Source: Litoreibacter arenae DSM 19593
Lineage (GTDB): Bacteria; Pseudomonadota; Alphaproteobacteria; Rhodobacterales; Rhodobacteraceae
Length of the DNA stretch: 64,000 bases
Direction of reading: 5' to 3'
NCBI RefSeq assembly: GCF_000442275.2
Contig: NZ_KE557314.1
Span: 62,001-126,000, forward strand
The translations under genes were made by a program, and so were the position numbers. Numbering within the stretch: the stretch's first letter is position 1; each line of letters starts with the position of its first letter. The notes under the pieces were generated by a model. It made no database searches, had not been told where the DNA came from, and saw only the letters and a program-made list of their open reading frames with translations. Shown piece by piece: positions 1,539 to 12,235 of this stretch.

Positions 1539-2183
1539 TTAGCCGACAGTCGCCTTCGACCGCGACATCCGCCGCGCGCCTACAAGCAAGCCTAGCCCGG
1601 CCAGCAGGAAGCCCAGCGACGCTGGCAGCGGAACCGGCGCGATCGACAGGGACGTCACGTCATGCGTGACAGTCACCCCGTATCCCATCTGCGTAAAATG
1701 GCGGGTTCCGTCATCCCAGGAATAGCTCCGGTCATCCGAGTACCGAAGAGACCCGGCACCAAGTTGCGTCAAAAAGCTGAGCCCGTCGCTATTGCTGAAA
1801 TCAGTGGCGTCGAACGCCAAACGCGTGACTGTGCCAGTGCAAAGCGAGCGCAACACACCGGTGCAATTCGAGAAGACCGGCGCGACAGCATCGGCGTCCG
1901 CCTCATCATAGACGAACTGCAGCGATCCTGTGGTTTGGCGCGCATCTGCGATCCAGCTAAAGCCATCAAGGGCAGATGATGCGGCATCGGTGTAGCTCAG
2001 CCCCGTGTGACGTTGATACCGGCCAGTGGCCATATCACGCGAAATGGCAGACCCGAAGGCAACCGAGTTGAACTCGGTCTCGACATTCACTTCATAGAGG
2101 ACGGGCGCAGCCTGCGCCGAGAATGCCGTAAGGGCTGCGGCGCTTGCGGCAACACAAAGTGTCTTGAATTTATTGAGAGTCAT
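1539..2183 (-). CDS. VPLPA-CTERM sorting domain exported protein
   Basis: The product has 214 residues. It begins with a Sec signal peptide (about residues 1-25, ending AFSAQA) and ends with the tripartite sorting signal: VPLPAS at about residue 184, a hydrophobic stretch, and ARRMSRSK. In VPLPA-CTERM proteins, common in Rhodobacterales, this tail is recognised by an exosortase-type enzyme for surface or extracellular delivery. The middle has no domain I recognise. The start at 2183 is chosen because GCGAGG precedes it at good spacing and it gives a clean signal peptide; a start at 2243 would bury that signal. The gene lies between rplW and rplB, flanked by hairpins on both sides, which is an odd place for a surface protein. 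Confidence 0.85.
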   Translation of the reverse strand: MTLNKFKTLCVAASAAALTAFSAQAAPVLYEVNVETEFNSVAFGSAISRDMATGRYQRHTGLSYTDAASSALDGFSWIADARQTTGSLQFVYDEADADAVAPVFSNCTGVLRSLCTGTVTRLAFDATDFSNSDGLSFLTQLGAGSLRYSDDRSYSWDDGTRHFTQMGYGVTVTHDVTSLSIAPVPLPASLGFLLAGLGLLVGARRMSRSKATVG

Positions 2184-2480
2184 ATCGGGCCTCGCAGAAA
2201 AAGGCGGAAACAAAAAGGTAATTACATGGCTAAAGTCGGTCATTTCCTCTGGAAAGTAAAGGTTTATTAAGCTTCATCGAATTCAGCACTACACGGCAGC
2301 AACGGCCGCTTTCGGATTGAAAACAATGATCTAGTACAGAAAGAACTGTTCTTCATTTTGCAACTATTCACGAGAGTGGAACATTATTCTCACAGGAATT
2401 CCGCCCTGTCCCGGGCGCGACGACTCGCCCACCGCGGCCTCAGCAAAGCCGACAGCCCTCTGAAAACCGCATCAATCCAA
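2184..2480. other. Non-coding region upstream of the VPLPA-CTERM gene
   Basis: No gene with a plausible start and family match is visible in this stretch, which is clearly A+T-richer around 2330-2400 than the surroundings. It contains the palindrome at 2341-2353. Together with the rplW terminator at 2482-2512 it makes up the 366-base gap between rplW and the exported protein gene, and should hold that gene's promoter on the minus strand. I could not pick a convincing -35/-10 pair. Confidence 0.5.
2341..2353. promoter_or_regulatory. Perfect palindrome, candidate operator
   Basis: The sequence aagaactgttctt is an exact inverted repeat (aagaac, one centre base, gttctt). It lies about 160 bases upstream of the VPLPA-CTERM start, within an A+T-rich patch. 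Size and symmetry fit a dimeric regulator site, but no regulator is identified and a 13-mer palindrome can occur by chance. Confidence 0.25.
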
Positions 2481-4731: not shown

Positions 4732-4760
4732 AACAAAAGAAGGGCACGCGTGGCGTACCC
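4732..4760 (-). terminator. Intrinsic terminator after the DUF4062 gene
   Basis: An 8-bp stem (gggcacgc at 4742-4749, gcgtaccc at 4753-4760) closes a 3-base loop. On the minus strand the one imperfect pair becomes a U-G wobble and the stem is followed by TTCTTTTGTTTC. It lies about 100 bases past the DUF4062 stop and about 90 before rpsJ, isolating the two transcripts. Confidence 0.7.
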
Positions 4761-4858
4761 CTGTTCCGTGTGGGTGCTATAGGGGGAGTCGGTCGAGGTG
4801 TCTAGGGGGTTTAGGAGCAAATGCATGACAACTTAGATGTCTTGCTGCACCAAACCTC

Positions 4859-5950
4859 TCAGAACGGAATTTCATCATCAACGGAGCTCGTCACCGAGGC
4901 AATTGTAGTTCTTCCTCGGCTCAAGATAAACGGAGGCTTCTCCGGATCTGTTAACAAATGGCGTCGCGCTAATCTTTGCGCCAGTTGCGTGAAGGGTTCT
5001 ACTCCTTCAGTATTCATCAAACCAGCCTCAATATAAAACGCCGACAACTTGTCGTAAGTACCCTTGCTGATTTTGAAGGCCCCAGTGCAGTCTTGATCAC
5101 TAACCTCCTGTACTAAGGCAGAACCTATCGCCGTAAGGGTATCCTCGACATCGACCCAGTAAAAATCATCTCCGTTATATTCGTCTGATCGCCACTTGAG
5201 GTTTCCATAAAAAATGGGGAACGCCGACATCCATGAGGTGGAAATTGAGCCGCTTCCTGCAGTCGTTACACTTGCTCCGTAACCACCACGACGCGATGAT
5301 GGCAAAAAATCGATCTCAATCGTCGAAGTTGCATCAGGCAAGTCTGGGAGCGGAATTTCGATTGCTAGTTGGTTAACTGCAGCTCGGAACTTTTCGTTCT
5401 CTCTCCTCACCTCATTTAATTCTTCCAGCGCTTTAATACTGGCTGTCGTATCACCACGAACCCAGCCTACTCGGTGCTTGGTCGCTTTTGCATGTTCCAA
5501 GGCCTCACGAACACGTAGTTTGAGCTGATCGCTTGAGGACCATGTGGTTCGGAGTCGTTCTTCCGTTGCCTCCGAGATAAAAGCTTCTAGTTTTTTGCGG
5601 CCCTCTTCGGAAATCTCAGACTTGCCCACCGCAATGGTTTTAGGATTTTCATGAACAATAACTAAAACAGGAACACCTTTGGACACCGCGTATCTGTATT
5701 CTTTATGAGTATAGCTAAGCCCATCGTCTGCAGGAGTGCCGTATCGCCCACCGATAACGAGCACGTAATAATCACATTGATCAATTAGCGTTTTGATAAA
5801 TGCGAACTGCCCCTCATCCGCAGCAGGGAATGATTCCATTTGAACAGGAAAGTCACCCATTTGGATGATCGTATCCTGAACCGCCCGCCGTTCCTCGCGA
5901 AGGTCTTCAAATGTGGAACTGATGAACACCTGATATCTTTTGTCACTCAT
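4859..5950 (-). CDS. DUF4062 domain-containing protein, candidate defence/conflict gene
   Basis: The 363-residue product opens with a typical DUF4062 domain: VFISSTFEDL at 8-17 followed by REERRAV, the strand DYYVLVIGGRYG at about 60-71, and SYTHKEYRYA at 79-88 followed by VPVLVIV. A charged coiled-coil-like helix (about 169-194) follows, then a beta-rich, aromatic C-terminal part (about 195-363) that I do not recognise. No NTPase motif is present. DUF4062 is often the N-terminal domain of STAND-NTPase and other conflict proteins and is thought to be TIR-like; a defence role here is inference. The gene is A+T-richer than its neighbours (hand count 45% G+C at 5401-5460, 60% at 6481-6540 in tuf). 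It lies between tuf and rpsJ with a terminator on each side, which suggests transfer into the operon. Confidence 0.8.
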   Translation of the reverse strand: MSDKRYQVFISSTFEDLREERRAVQDTIIQMGDFPVQMESFPAADEGQFAFIKTLIDQCDYYVLVIGGRYGTPADDGLSYTHKEYRYAVSKGVPVLVIVHENPKTIAVGKSEISEEGRKKLEAFISEATEERLRTTWSSSDQLKLRVREALEHAKATKHRVGWVRGDTTASIKALEELNEVRRENEKFRAAVNQLAIEIPLPDLPDATSTIEIDFLPSSRRGGYGASVTTAGSGSISTSWMSAFPIFYGNLKWRSDEYNGDDFYWVDVEDTLTAIGSALVQEVSDQDCTGAFKISKGTYDKLSAFYIEAGLMNTEGVEPFTQLAQRLARRHLLTDPEKPPFILSRGRTTIASVTSSVDDEIPF

Positions 5951-5995: not shown

Positions 5996-6032
5996 CAAAA
6001 AAGGCCGCCCCGAGGAGTGCTCGGGGCGGCCT
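5996..6032 (-). terminator. Strong intrinsic terminator after tuf(A)
   Basis: A perfect 13-bp stem (aggccgccccgag at 6002-6014, ctcggggcggcct at 6020-6032) closes a 5-base loop. On the minus strand it runs into TTTTTTG. It ends the rpsL-rpsG-fusA-tuf transcript about 75 bases after the tuf stop. Only 45 bases then remain before the DUF4062 start, so that gene's promoter must be very close or overlap the terminator. Confidence 0.9.
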
Positions 6033-10670: not shown

Positions 10671-11582
10671 TCACCTCAAACGTAGGCCCGCACGCTGACG
10701 TTTCGCGGTCTTGCGTTCTCGGTAAAGCGTGAACAATCCCGTTGCCACGACGATGGCAGAGCCCAGCAGCGTAAGGTTGTCCGGCCAGTCACCGAAAATC
10801 AGCAACCCGAGCAGCAGCGCCACGATCAGGCTGGTGTAGCGGAATGGGGCGACAAATCCGATCTCACCCGACCTCATCGCTGACACCGAGAATATATATC
10901 CGCCAATGACAAAGAAACTCGCCCCGGCCAACCACAGGAGCGACGTCGCGCTCACTGGCTGCCACGGTTGGGTGAGGCTTCCAACCGCGCCCAGCGACAT
11001 GACGCCAACAGCGGCCGAAAGCGCAATCGTCATCGACGGCACCGCGACCGAAATCCGCCGTGCGCATAAATCGCGCACGGTAACGCAGGCCACCGCCAAC
11101 AACACGTATATGGAATAGACAGAAAAGCCGCTTCCCTCTCCGAACAAAAGTGGCGGGCGCAGGATCAGCATAACACCGGCGAAACCTATCAAAATGGCCA
11201 CAAGTCGCTTCCACCCCACGGCCTCCCCCAGAAAGACCGCGCCGGCGAGCGTGACCGTCAGCGGGAGCGCCTGAAGGATCGCGGTCACGTCCGCGATAGG
11301 CAGATGAAAGAGCGCCGAGATAAAGAAAAACGCCGCCGCAATTTCGACCACCGTGCGCAGCGCGATAAGCAATTGATCCCTGCGCGCTATGGGTGTCCGG
11401 AAGCTCCCCGCGCGCCATGCCATGAAGCCAAGAAACGCGATAACGGCGATTGATCGCAACAAGATAGCTTGAAACAACGGCAACTCGCCGGAAAGCGACT
11501 TCATGCAGGCGTCATTTACCGTGAACGCTGCCATTGAGCCCGTCATATACAGGGCGCCGCGAGTGTTGTCTGAGATTGCCAT
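10671..11582 (-). CDS. EamA/DMT-family permease
   Basis: The 303-residue product is a drug/metabolite transporter family membrane protein. It has about ten hydrophobic segments in two EamA halves (the first about residues 10-140, the second about 150-290), and ends in a basic cytoplasmic tail (RERKTAKRQRAGLRLR). The start MAISDNTRGALYMTGSMAAFTVNDACMKSL-type sequence is common in roseobacter members annotated as DMT exporters. The substrate cannot be told from sequence. The gene sits between rpoC and the str promoter but is not part of either operon; it stops 40 bases before that promoter. Confidence 0.88.
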   Translation of the reverse strand: MAISDNTRGALYMTGSMAAFTVNDACMKSLSGELPLFQAILLRSIAVIAFLGFMAWRAGSFRTPIARRDQLLIALRTVVEIAAAFFFISALFHLPIADVTAILQALPLTVTLAGAVFLGEAVGWKRLVAILIGFAGVMLILRPPLLFGEGSGFSVYSIYVLLAVACVTVRDLCARRISVAVPSMTIALSAAVGVMSLGAVGSLTQPWQPVSATSLLWLAGASFFVIGGYIFSVSAMRSGEIGFVAPFRYTSLIVALLLGLLIFGDWPDNLTLLGSAIVVATGLFTLYRERKTAKRQRAGLRLR

Positions 11583-11681
11583 GAATCGCAGCTATCATCA
11601 AAGCGCTGGCCTGAATAGATGCAGCCTTACCCTGTGCATTTATCTTGCAAGCTTCGCACTAAGCGACGGGGTTCTCGGAAC

Positions 11682-11710
11682 TTTACCGATACGATCGAGT
11701 TTAACCGATA
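11682..11710 (+). promoter_or_regulatory. Near-identical direct repeats upstream of an exported protein gene
   Basis: TTTACCGATA (11682-11691) recurs as TTTAACCGATA (11700-11710), about 18-19 bases apart and 43-70 bases before the start at 11753. The spacing, close to two helical turns, would fit tandem regulator binding or parts of the promoter. No known motif was recognised. Confidence 0.3.
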
Positions 11711-11752
11711 TCCAAGGCGCATCTGCGCCGAGAACTAACATCGGAGATAAAA

Positions 11753-12235
11753 ATGCTAAAATTACTAGCCCCCGCCACCGCCGCTGCGGCACTTCTTGCA
11801 ACGGCATCTTTCGCGGAAACGACCGTCAGCAATGTTGACGTCACTGTCGATCTGACGGCTGTCAAAAACGAGACCGCAGCCGCCTATTACACCAGCTTGG
11901 AAGAGGATCTGGAAACCGCGATCATTTCGAAGGTGACGCCTCAACTGGCGACTGACGGTGCCAGCGTCATCGTCGACATCGATGAATTGTCACTGGCCAA
12001 CAGCTTCCAGTCCATTCTGGGCATCGCAGAGTCGGAACTATCAGGTTCTGTGACCATCAGCAACTTGCAGGATAACTCCGAGCATCAGGCTTACAATCTG
12101 ACAGTAAGCTTCGAACCCGCTCCGATTGTGCTGTCGCCTGATGAGGACGTGGTCGTCCTGCGCAGCAGCACGACGGATTACTATATCCAGATGGTCGACA
12201 AATTCGCCGAGAATGTGGCCGACAAACTCAAGTAA
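11753..12235 (+). CDS. Exported protein of unknown function
   Basis: The 160-residue product has a Sec signal peptide (about residues 1-21, ending TASFAE) and no other domain I recognise. The mature part is acidic and Thr/Ser-rich, rich in alternating beta-strand patterns such as VSNVDVTVDL and GSVTISNLQ, and ends with a helical EN-VADKLK segment. It is probably periplasmic and soluble. GGAG sits 7 bases before the ATG. It is the only plus-strand gene inside the rif-str supercluster, converging on rpoC, with a strong terminator between them. Confidence 0.8.
   Translation: MLKLLAPATAAAALLATASFAETTVSNVDVTVDLTAVKNETAAAYYTSLEEDLETAIISKVTPQLATDGASVIVDIDELSLANSFQSILGIAESELSGSVTISNLQDNSEHQAYNLTVSFEPAPIVLSPDEDVVVLRSSTTDYYIQMVDKFAENVADKLK

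What the first reader, a model, noticed from the sequence alone, without database searches (positions are those of the whole stretch)
4859..5950. DUF4062 gene inserted between tuf and rpsJ inside the ribosomal supercluster
The protein has a clear DUF4062 domain (VFISSTFEDL at 8-17, VIGGRYG at 65-71, SYTHKEYRYA at 79-88), a coiled-coil linker and a C-terminal part of about 165 residues I cannot place. DUF4062 proteins are frequent in STAND and other conflict systems. This one lacks any NTPase, is A+T-richer than flanking genes (45% against 60% in two 60-base hand counts), and sits between two strong terminators at the tuf-rpsJ junction. It may be a single-gene defence or stress sensor. Its position next to EF-Tu and S10 also allows a link to translation, which some phages attack.
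Basis: partly seen in the sequence, partly recalled or inferred. Interest (0 to 1): 0.7.

Follow-up and report, generated by a model that had tools for sequence, protein, structure and literature searches.

The report
TIR-like NADase with SSB-like tail
A lone gene wedged between two ribosomal gene blocks looks like a phage-triggered NAD-destroying suicide enzyme of the newly described Swarozyc kind, and its last residues copy the tail that the cell's single-stranded-DNA-binding protein uses to hold its partners, which suggests a bait or tether that could be tested directly.

Summary
The gene is real: 4859-5950 (-), 363 aa, between tuf and rpsJ. Residues 7-88 are DUF4062, reported in a May 2026 preprint as a TIR-like NADase that drives the single-gene antiphage system Swarozyc. 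The catalytic Glu is kept (E84). The unplaced C-terminal part is a distant profile relative of the Swarozyc sensor (AUX) domain; no fold match was found. The surprise is the end of the protein. This protein and 12 of 12 other loci of its subfamily finish in [DE][DE][IV]PF, the SSB C-terminal tip; 55 of 55 other DUF4062 frames examined do not. In the host genome only ssb and this gene encode (D/E)(D/E)(I/V)PF-stop. The tip follows the host clade's SSB, and in one Rhizobium the last 14 residues equal SSB's. I infer a NADase with an SSB-tail bait or tether. The tuf-rpsJ site is a variable cargo spot (13 of 15 genus junctions filled), so its place suggests no link to translation. Function is inferred; nothing was tested at the bench.

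The parts
4859..5950 (-). DUF4062 gene, 363 aa, Swarozyc-like TIR-like NADase with SSB-like tail
5687..5932 (-). DUF4062 (TIR-like) Pfam core, residues 7-88
   Evidence: Pfam PF13271 E 5.1e-29; TIR domains at ranks 5, 8 and 10 of the Foldseek list, below EF-Tu hits of low TM-score that I take as spurious
5699..5701 (-). Predicted catalytic glutamate E84
   Evidence: invariant in 11 of 11; aligned with the KpSwz position that carries A in the deposited chain 10wc, which I take to be E97A from the paper
5375..5434 (-). Stalk helix, residues 173-192
   Evidence: AF2 model, low pLDDT in this stretch; KpSwz has a helical stalk here
4913..5338 (-). AUX-like sensor domain, residues 205-346
   Evidence: profile match to Swarozyc AUX family E 1.3e-4, above 150 of 150 column shuffles; AF2 pTM 0.70; no fold match
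4880..4912 (-). Variable linker, residues 347-357
   Evidence: gapped, low conservation in alignment A1
4862..4879 (-). SSB-Ct-like tip DDEIPF, residues 358-363, at the exact C-terminus
6002..6032 (-). tuf terminator hairpin (left boundary of cargo)
   Evidence: a like hairpin recurs in the genus alignment
4776..4804 (-). Promoter-like block of S10 operon (TAGACA-17-TATAGC), right boundary of cargo
   Evidence: conserved block in genus alignment; promoter role inferred, not found by the scan tool
4740..4762 (-). Terminator-like hairpin in the S10 leader, conserved regardless of cargo

Best explanation
The gene encodes a single-protein abortive-infection defence of the Swarozyc kind. Inferred steps: (1) the N-terminal TIR-like domain hydrolyses NAD+ using E84 once it is clustered; (2) it is held off at rest by dimer/stalk packing; (3) the C-terminal AUX-like domain plus an SSB-mimicking C-terminal tip form the sensing end. 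The tip docks into the SSB-tail pocket of proteins that normally bind SSB. The version I think most likely is a bait: phage recombination or replication proteins that seize the host SSB tail (RecT-type annealing proteins, YbcN) also seize this tail, gather many copies, and so switch on the NADase, which kills the infected cell before phage release. Shown here: domain content, kept catalytic residue, distant AUX relationship, tail identity and its tracking of host SSB, mobile single-gene behaviour. Inferred: NADase activity of this protein, tail binding, phage trigger, cell death.
For: KpSwz (PDB 10wc) matches residues 3-198 at E 4.9e-55; the preprint reports NADase activity, need for E97 and AUX, portal activation and abortive infection. 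AUX relationship: E 1.3e-4 over 145 columns; score 32.8 against a best of 20.6 in 150 column shuffles, and 32.1 without the tail. Tail: present in the window protein and in 12 of 12 other loci of the subfamily (11 distinct proteins), absent in 55 of 55 other DUF4062 frames (52 distinct; two run off their locus) and in KpSwz. In the own genome the DNA pattern for (D/E)(D/E)(I/V)PF-stop occurs twice, at ssb and here; the GTG codon left out of that pattern adds none. The residue four from the end (E or D) equals that of the host SSB in 8 of 8 genomes where both were read. In Rhizobium G523 the last 14 residues, GGNFSRDLDDDIPF, are identical to SSB's, with 4 synonymous changes in 36 nt over the last 12 codons. 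Last 6 columns 0.83 conserved against 0.42 for the linker. Phage RecT action is linked to seven C-terminal SSB residues (PMC10711431, passages); YbcN failed to associate with SSB lacking the tail (PMC4118853, abstract and one passage). Three viral contigs hold the subfamily, one near a terminase gene, one near SIR2-like and amidase genes. Fourfold sites are saturated (27 of 109 identical) at 72% protein identity to G017, so the protein is under selection.
Against: No activity or binding was tested. No fold match for the C-terminal domain in PDB or BFVD. hhalign gives only 54% probability for the AUX match, and against a small group that is itself related to AUX (E 1e-11) the window family gives just E 0.08. 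A similar tip ends UvrD-type helicases in many relatives (28 of 40 extra hits that I chose and inspected by eye), and the host's own UvrD ends GDVPF, so the motif is not exclusive to SSB. The 8 of 8 tracking rests on two clades only; in Rhizobium G522 the longer match to SSB has differences. Some RecT proteins act across several SSBs. KpSwz works without such a tail, so the tail is not needed for the general mechanism.
Confidence: 0.45

Rival explanations
1. Plain Swarozyc: the AUX-like domain alone senses a phage structural protein such as portal and drives NADase-based abortive infection; the tail is a minor stabilising or regulatory end.
For: Same architecture; TIR part clearly and AUX part distantly related to KpSwz; KpSwz needs only these.
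Against: The tail is the best conserved stretch of a poorly conserved half and matches the host SSB tip; the 55 other DUF4062 frames lack it.
Confidence: 0.24
2. The tail tethers the NADase to host SSB partners (such as RecO, RecG, PriA, ExoI) at forks, so that the trigger is replication or repair collapse rather than a phage protein.
For: The tip equals the host SSB tip, and SSB's tip is a hub for many genome-maintenance proteins (starts of abstracts listed).
Against: Occurrence on viral contigs and as lone cargo suits either view; no DNA-damage regulation was looked for.
Confidence: 0.17
3. The tail binds the protein's own AUX-like domain and keeps it off; free SSB tails made by the phage compete and release it, so the protein measures SSB overload.
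For: Phage SSB is a reported trigger of AbpAB (title and start of abstract, PMC10732053); RecQ binds SSB-Ct through its winged helix (recalled).
Against: AF2 leaves the tail mostly at pLDDT below 50, so it shows no confident docking.
Confidence: 0.08
4. A translation-linked or housekeeping function that explains its place between tuf and rpsJ.
For: Position only; a second genus member has it there too.
Against: 13 of 15 genus junctions are filled, and among their frames only the DUF4062 pair is alike; the other subfamily members whose surroundings I read sit elsewhere.
Confidence: 0.02

Closest known systems
Swarozyc, KpSwz (PMC13174449; PDB 10wc, 11cq, 11cv)
   Same: Single gene; N-terminal DUF4062/TIR-like domain with the catalytic Glu; stalk; distantly related C-terminal AUX part.
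   Different: AUX only recognisable by profile, longer, and followed by a linker and an SSB-like tip that KpSwz lacks; portal sensing unknown.
Bacterial SSB C-terminal tip (SSB-Ct)
   Same: Acidic residues then I/V-P-F at the very C-terminus after a variable linker; same E/D choice as host SSB in 8 of 8 genomes.
   Different: Not attached to an OB-fold ssDNA-binding domain but to a TIR-like NADase.
PHROG 15411 and 9489 (phage proteins of unknown function)
   Same: Match residues 3-195 and 1-194, i.e. the TIR-like domain and the stalk.
   Different: Match stops before the C-terminal domain and tail.
TIR-domain abortive-infection systems and human TEP1/NWD1/NPHP3 DUF4062 proteins
   Same: TIR-like domain family (paper).
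   Different: No NTPase, WD40 or partner gene seen here.

Membership tests
DUF4062 (PF13271) | Match to the family model above its cut-off | tested here: met
   100.8 bits against cut-off 24.7, full model
Swarozyc | TIR-like domain with catalytic Glu | tested here: met
   E84 invariant in 11 of 11; aligned to the mutated position of chain 10wc
Swarozyc | C-terminal AUX (HTH/winged) domain after a helical stalk | tested here: inconclusive
   Profile match E 1.3e-4, 54% probability, above all 150 shuffles, but only E 0.08 to another AUX-related group; no fold match, and KpSwz is not among the 50 hits listed or 82
Swarozyc | Encoded by a single gene | tested here: met
   Lone gene in window and in relatives with different neighbours
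Swarozyc | NADase activity, phage protection, portal activation | not testable with these tools
   No bench data; inferred from KpSwz
SSB-Ct motif | Acidic run plus I/V-P-F at the exact C-terminus after a variable linker | tested here: met
SSB-Ct motif | Binds SSB-interacting proteins | not testable with these tools
   No binding data
SSB protein | PF00436 OB-fold domain | tested here: not met
   Only DUF4062 is hit above cut-off in Pfam; the one PF00436 match of the host genome is elsewhere
PADLOC-listed defence system (2023) | Match to a PADLOC model | tested here: not met
   0 families at E up to 10

The most novel reading that the evidence does not exclude
A branch of Swarozyc-type TIR-like NADases has captured the host's SSB C-terminal tip and uses it as an integrated decoy: phage proteins evolved to grab the host SSB tail grab the suicide enzyme instead, and the tip is kept matched to the host's SSB. 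This would be a bacterial counterpart of the integrated decoys of plant immune receptors, guarding the replication and recombination hub of the cell.
Probability: 0.3. Interest if true: 0.85.

Novelty: new variant of a known kind. Interest (0 to 1): 0.62.

Why it matters
TIR-like NADases of this family were tied to antiphage defence in a 2026 preprint, with one identified trigger (portal). An SSB-tip on a whole branch of them points to a second sensing route and gives a short peptide experiment that can show it. If the tail is a bait, a phage could not easily change its SSB-tail binding pocket without losing its own recombination or replication partner, which would make it a hard sensor to escape. 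The junction survey also shows that a site between tuf and the S10 promoter-like block, under 400 bp in 45 of 52 other genera surveyed, is filled in 13 of 15 members of this genus, with unrelated frames except for the DUF4062 pair.

Tried and rejected
Translation link: rejected because of the variable junction content. Vertical inheritance of the tuf-rpsJ copy: the two carriers fall on opposite sides of a split with support 100 in the genus tree and fourfold sites are saturated, so separate acquisition or very old presence with many replacements are both possible; not resolved. Other junction cargo as defence genes: of 34 frames of 75 aa or more found in junctions of genus and family (mechanical frames, some surely not genes) I scanned 10 by Pfam, with one family above cut-off (DUF6968) and weak hits only for two more, and 9 by PADLOC, with none. 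So the site is a cargo site, not shown to be a defence island. Fold search: for the full model EF-Tu and other translation GTPases rank first with TM-scores of 0.2-0.3, TIR domains follow from rank 5; the C-terminal model gave nothing better than E 0.08. A scan of viral contigs with the C-terminal domain alone found 2 loci, both already known and behind DUF4062. Paper searches: SSB-Ct with antiphage (0 papers), SSB tail with TIR and NADase, SSB-Ct with mimic/phage/immune (one listed paper with SSB-Ct, a plasmid review, not read) and SSB C-terminal with anti-phage (one listed paper with both, not read) showed me no report of an SSB tip on a defence protein; I saw listings only, in a library without subscription journals. 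The Swarozyc main text does not mention SSB; its supplement was not read.

Full report
Observation. The reading frame at 4859-5950 on the minus strand is intact, starts with ATG and encodes 363 residues with the quoted motifs at the quoted places. Its GC is 0.477 and GC3 0.455, against 0.622 and 0.806 for tuf and a GC of 0.594 for the window. It lies between the end of tuf (6108) and the start of rpsJ (4667), behind a strong tuf terminator at 6002-6032. That the block is a promoter is my inference; the scan tool did not list it.

What the protein is. Pfam places residues 7-88 in DUF4062 at E 5.1e-29. Two phage protein families match residues 3-195 and 1-194; PADLOC 2023 has no match. Among solved chains the only convincing match is KpSwz, residues 3-198, E 4.9e-55. 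I read the abstract, part 1 of 2 of the Results, the Discussion and the figure legends of PMC13174449. It is a preprint. It reports that DUF4062 is a TIR-like NADase, that K. pneumoniae Swarozyc protects against phages by abortive infection, that E97 and the C-terminal AUX domain are needed, and that phage portal protein activates it. Window E84 aligns with the position that reads A in the deposited KpSwz chain; since the paper describes an E97A structure, I take E84 to be the catalytic glutamate. It is invariant in 11 of 11 aligned sequences. In the Foldseek search of the full model, EF-Tu hits rank first with TM-scores near 0.2 and TIR domains follow from rank 5.

The C-terminal part. The window's C-terminal region with ten relatives was compared by profile with 18 AUX sequences of Swarozyc type (KpSwz and 17 others, one of which matches KpSwz over its whole length). 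The match covers 145 columns at E 1.3e-4 and 54% probability. Five comparison sets gave E 0.08-0.6: three other DUF4062 C-terminal groups (0.24, 0.6, 0.24), the TIR part (0.3), and a fourth group (0.08) which is itself related to AUX at E 1e-11, so that last value speaks somewhat against a close relationship. The real score of 32.8 exceeds all of 150 column-shuffled versions (best 20.6), the reversed alignment scores 12.1, and leaving out the tail changes little (32.1). AlphaFold2 gives the C-terminal region pTM 0.70 and mean pLDDT 77, but Foldseek finds no match in PDB or BFVD (best E 0.13 and 0.08). I therefore call it AUX-like by sequence profile, fold relationship open.

The tail. In the family alignment the less conserved half ends in a gapped linker and then a conserved acidic tip with invariant P-F at the exact C-terminus. 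Mean conservation of the last six columns is 0.83, of the linker 0.42. This is the form of the SSB C-terminal tip (DDDIPF; start of an abstract listed). Of 67 DUF4062 reading frames examined in loci, the 12 with a C-terminal part like the window's end in [DE][DE][IV]PF; the other 55 do not, and none of these ends in PF. The 12 are 11 distinct proteins and the 55 are 52; two of the 55 run off their locus and two are under 230 aa. In the own genome of 3.68 Mb the DNA pattern for (D/E)(D/E)(I/V)PF-stop occurs twice: at the end of the one ssb gene and at the end of this gene; the pattern lacked the valine codon GTG, which adds no hit. The host SSB ends SSDIDDEIPF, this protein SSVDDEIPF. In eight genomes where both could be read, the residue four from the end is the same in both proteins: E in six Rhodobacteraceae, D in two Rhizobium. 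These are only two clades. In Rhizobium G523 the last 14 residues are identical to SSB; over the last 12 codons 32 of 36 bases agree, the differences being synonymous. In G522 29 of 36 bases agree and one residue differs. That looks like an old capture of the ssb 3' end, or at least strong selection to match it.

How special is the tip. Of 198 family genomes, 191 have at least one hit of the pattern. I fetched 40 hits of my choice, 38 from family genomes with more than one hit and two from G525, mostly ones whose codons looked unlike ssb, so not a random sample. Reading the frames by eye, 28 are UvrD/PcrA-type helicases (two of them fragments), 3 SSB-like, 1 the DUF4062 protein of G525, 1 an Abi_C-like protein (Pfam E 4e-4, under its cut-off), 1 phage-type ATPase/primase-like, 3 unknown and 3 too short to be genes. 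The own UvrD ends GDVPF. So the tip marks DNA-metabolism proteins in this family, and the defence protein has joined that club.

Mobility and context. Of 148 genomes searched, the own one included, 10 have a DUF4062 match to the query and 4 hold it over at least 346 of 363 residues. Full-length relatives lie between a nadD-like and an ABC-F-type gene in Pacificibacter, beside thyX in G075, near an nSTAND3-Mrr gene or a TacA/GNAT-like pair in Rhizobium, and on three viral contigs, near a terminase gene in one and near SIR2-like and amidase genes in another. A Sinorhizobium copy (L037) is nearly identical to a Rhizobium copy over residues 166-368 (191 of 203) but only 114 of 165 before that, which suggests exchange of modules.

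The junction. In the genus (probably Litoreibacter: G017:C3 has the length and match coordinates of a Litoreibacter contig), 18 of 21 genomes gave rpsJ. Of 15 where tuf is seen upstream on the same contig, 13 have a gap of 793-3130 bp with at least one frame and 2 are short (64 and 304 bp). All-against-all comparison of 34 frames of 75 aa or more (21 from the genus) finds one pair only: the two DUF4062 genes. In other genera, 60 junctions were fetched out of 97 other genomes with rpsJ; 52 show tuf, of which 45 have 44-392 bp and 7 have 741-1591 bp. The two DUF4062 carriers fall on opposite sides of a split with support 100, though other nodes are weak, and fourfold sites between them are saturated (27 of 109 identical) at 72% protein identity. 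The gene is thus under long-standing selection, and the site is a cargo spot bounded by the tuf terminator and the S10 promoter-like block.

Mechanism. Shown: homology, kept catalytic residue, tail and its tracking, mobility. Inferred: NADase activity, resting inhibition, clustering as trigger, cell death. For the tail I favour a bait for phage proteins that bind the host SSB tail. [quoted passage not shown] PMC4118853 (abstract and one passage) reports that YbcN failed to associate with SSB lacking its tail, whereas lambda Orf did not need it. Ring-forming annealing proteins could cluster the NADase much as the portal ring clusters KpSwz; ring formation is recalled. A tether to host repair proteins, or an intramolecular lock, remain possible.

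Novelty. DUF4062 NADases and Swarozyc are known. The SSB-like tip on a defence protein is not reported as far as my searches reach (listings and one main text). I rate this a new variant of a known kind.

Noticed in passing
window 1539-2243 (-): A secreted-looking protein with a VPLPA C-terminal motif sits between rplW and rplB inside the S10 operon; in L001 the same place holds a ParD/ParE-like pair (11571-12109; names recognised by eye, not searched).
   Followed up: no
L045-L059 junctions (genus), L115-L166 (family): The tuf-rpsJ junction holds different frames in 13 of 15 genus members; of 10 frames scanned, out of 34, 7 had no Pfam match at E 0.1.
   Followed up: yes
L203-L242: Many Rhodobacteraceae UvrD-type helicases end in an SSB-like tip ([DE][DE][IV]PF); 28 of 40 hits that I chose and read by eye.
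   Followed up: partly
L215 (G557:C26): An Abi_C-like putative abortive-infection protein also ends in an SSB-like tip (SEDDIPF); Pfam Abi_C E 4e-4, just under cut-off.
   Followed up: partly
L037 8001-9104 against L003 8001-9104: Sinorhizobium and Rhizobium copies share nearly identical AUX and tail but differ in the TIR part, which suggests module exchange.
   Followed up: partly
L055 junction filler, 177 aa: Contains an R-N-K-M-V-H stretch reminiscent of HEPN nucleases (motif recalled); no Pfam or PADLOC hit.
   Followed up: no
L044 8715-10811: In G006 (same genus) a DUF4062 domain is fused to what looks like a PAS-histidine-kinase-receiver protein (domains named by eye).
   Followed up: no
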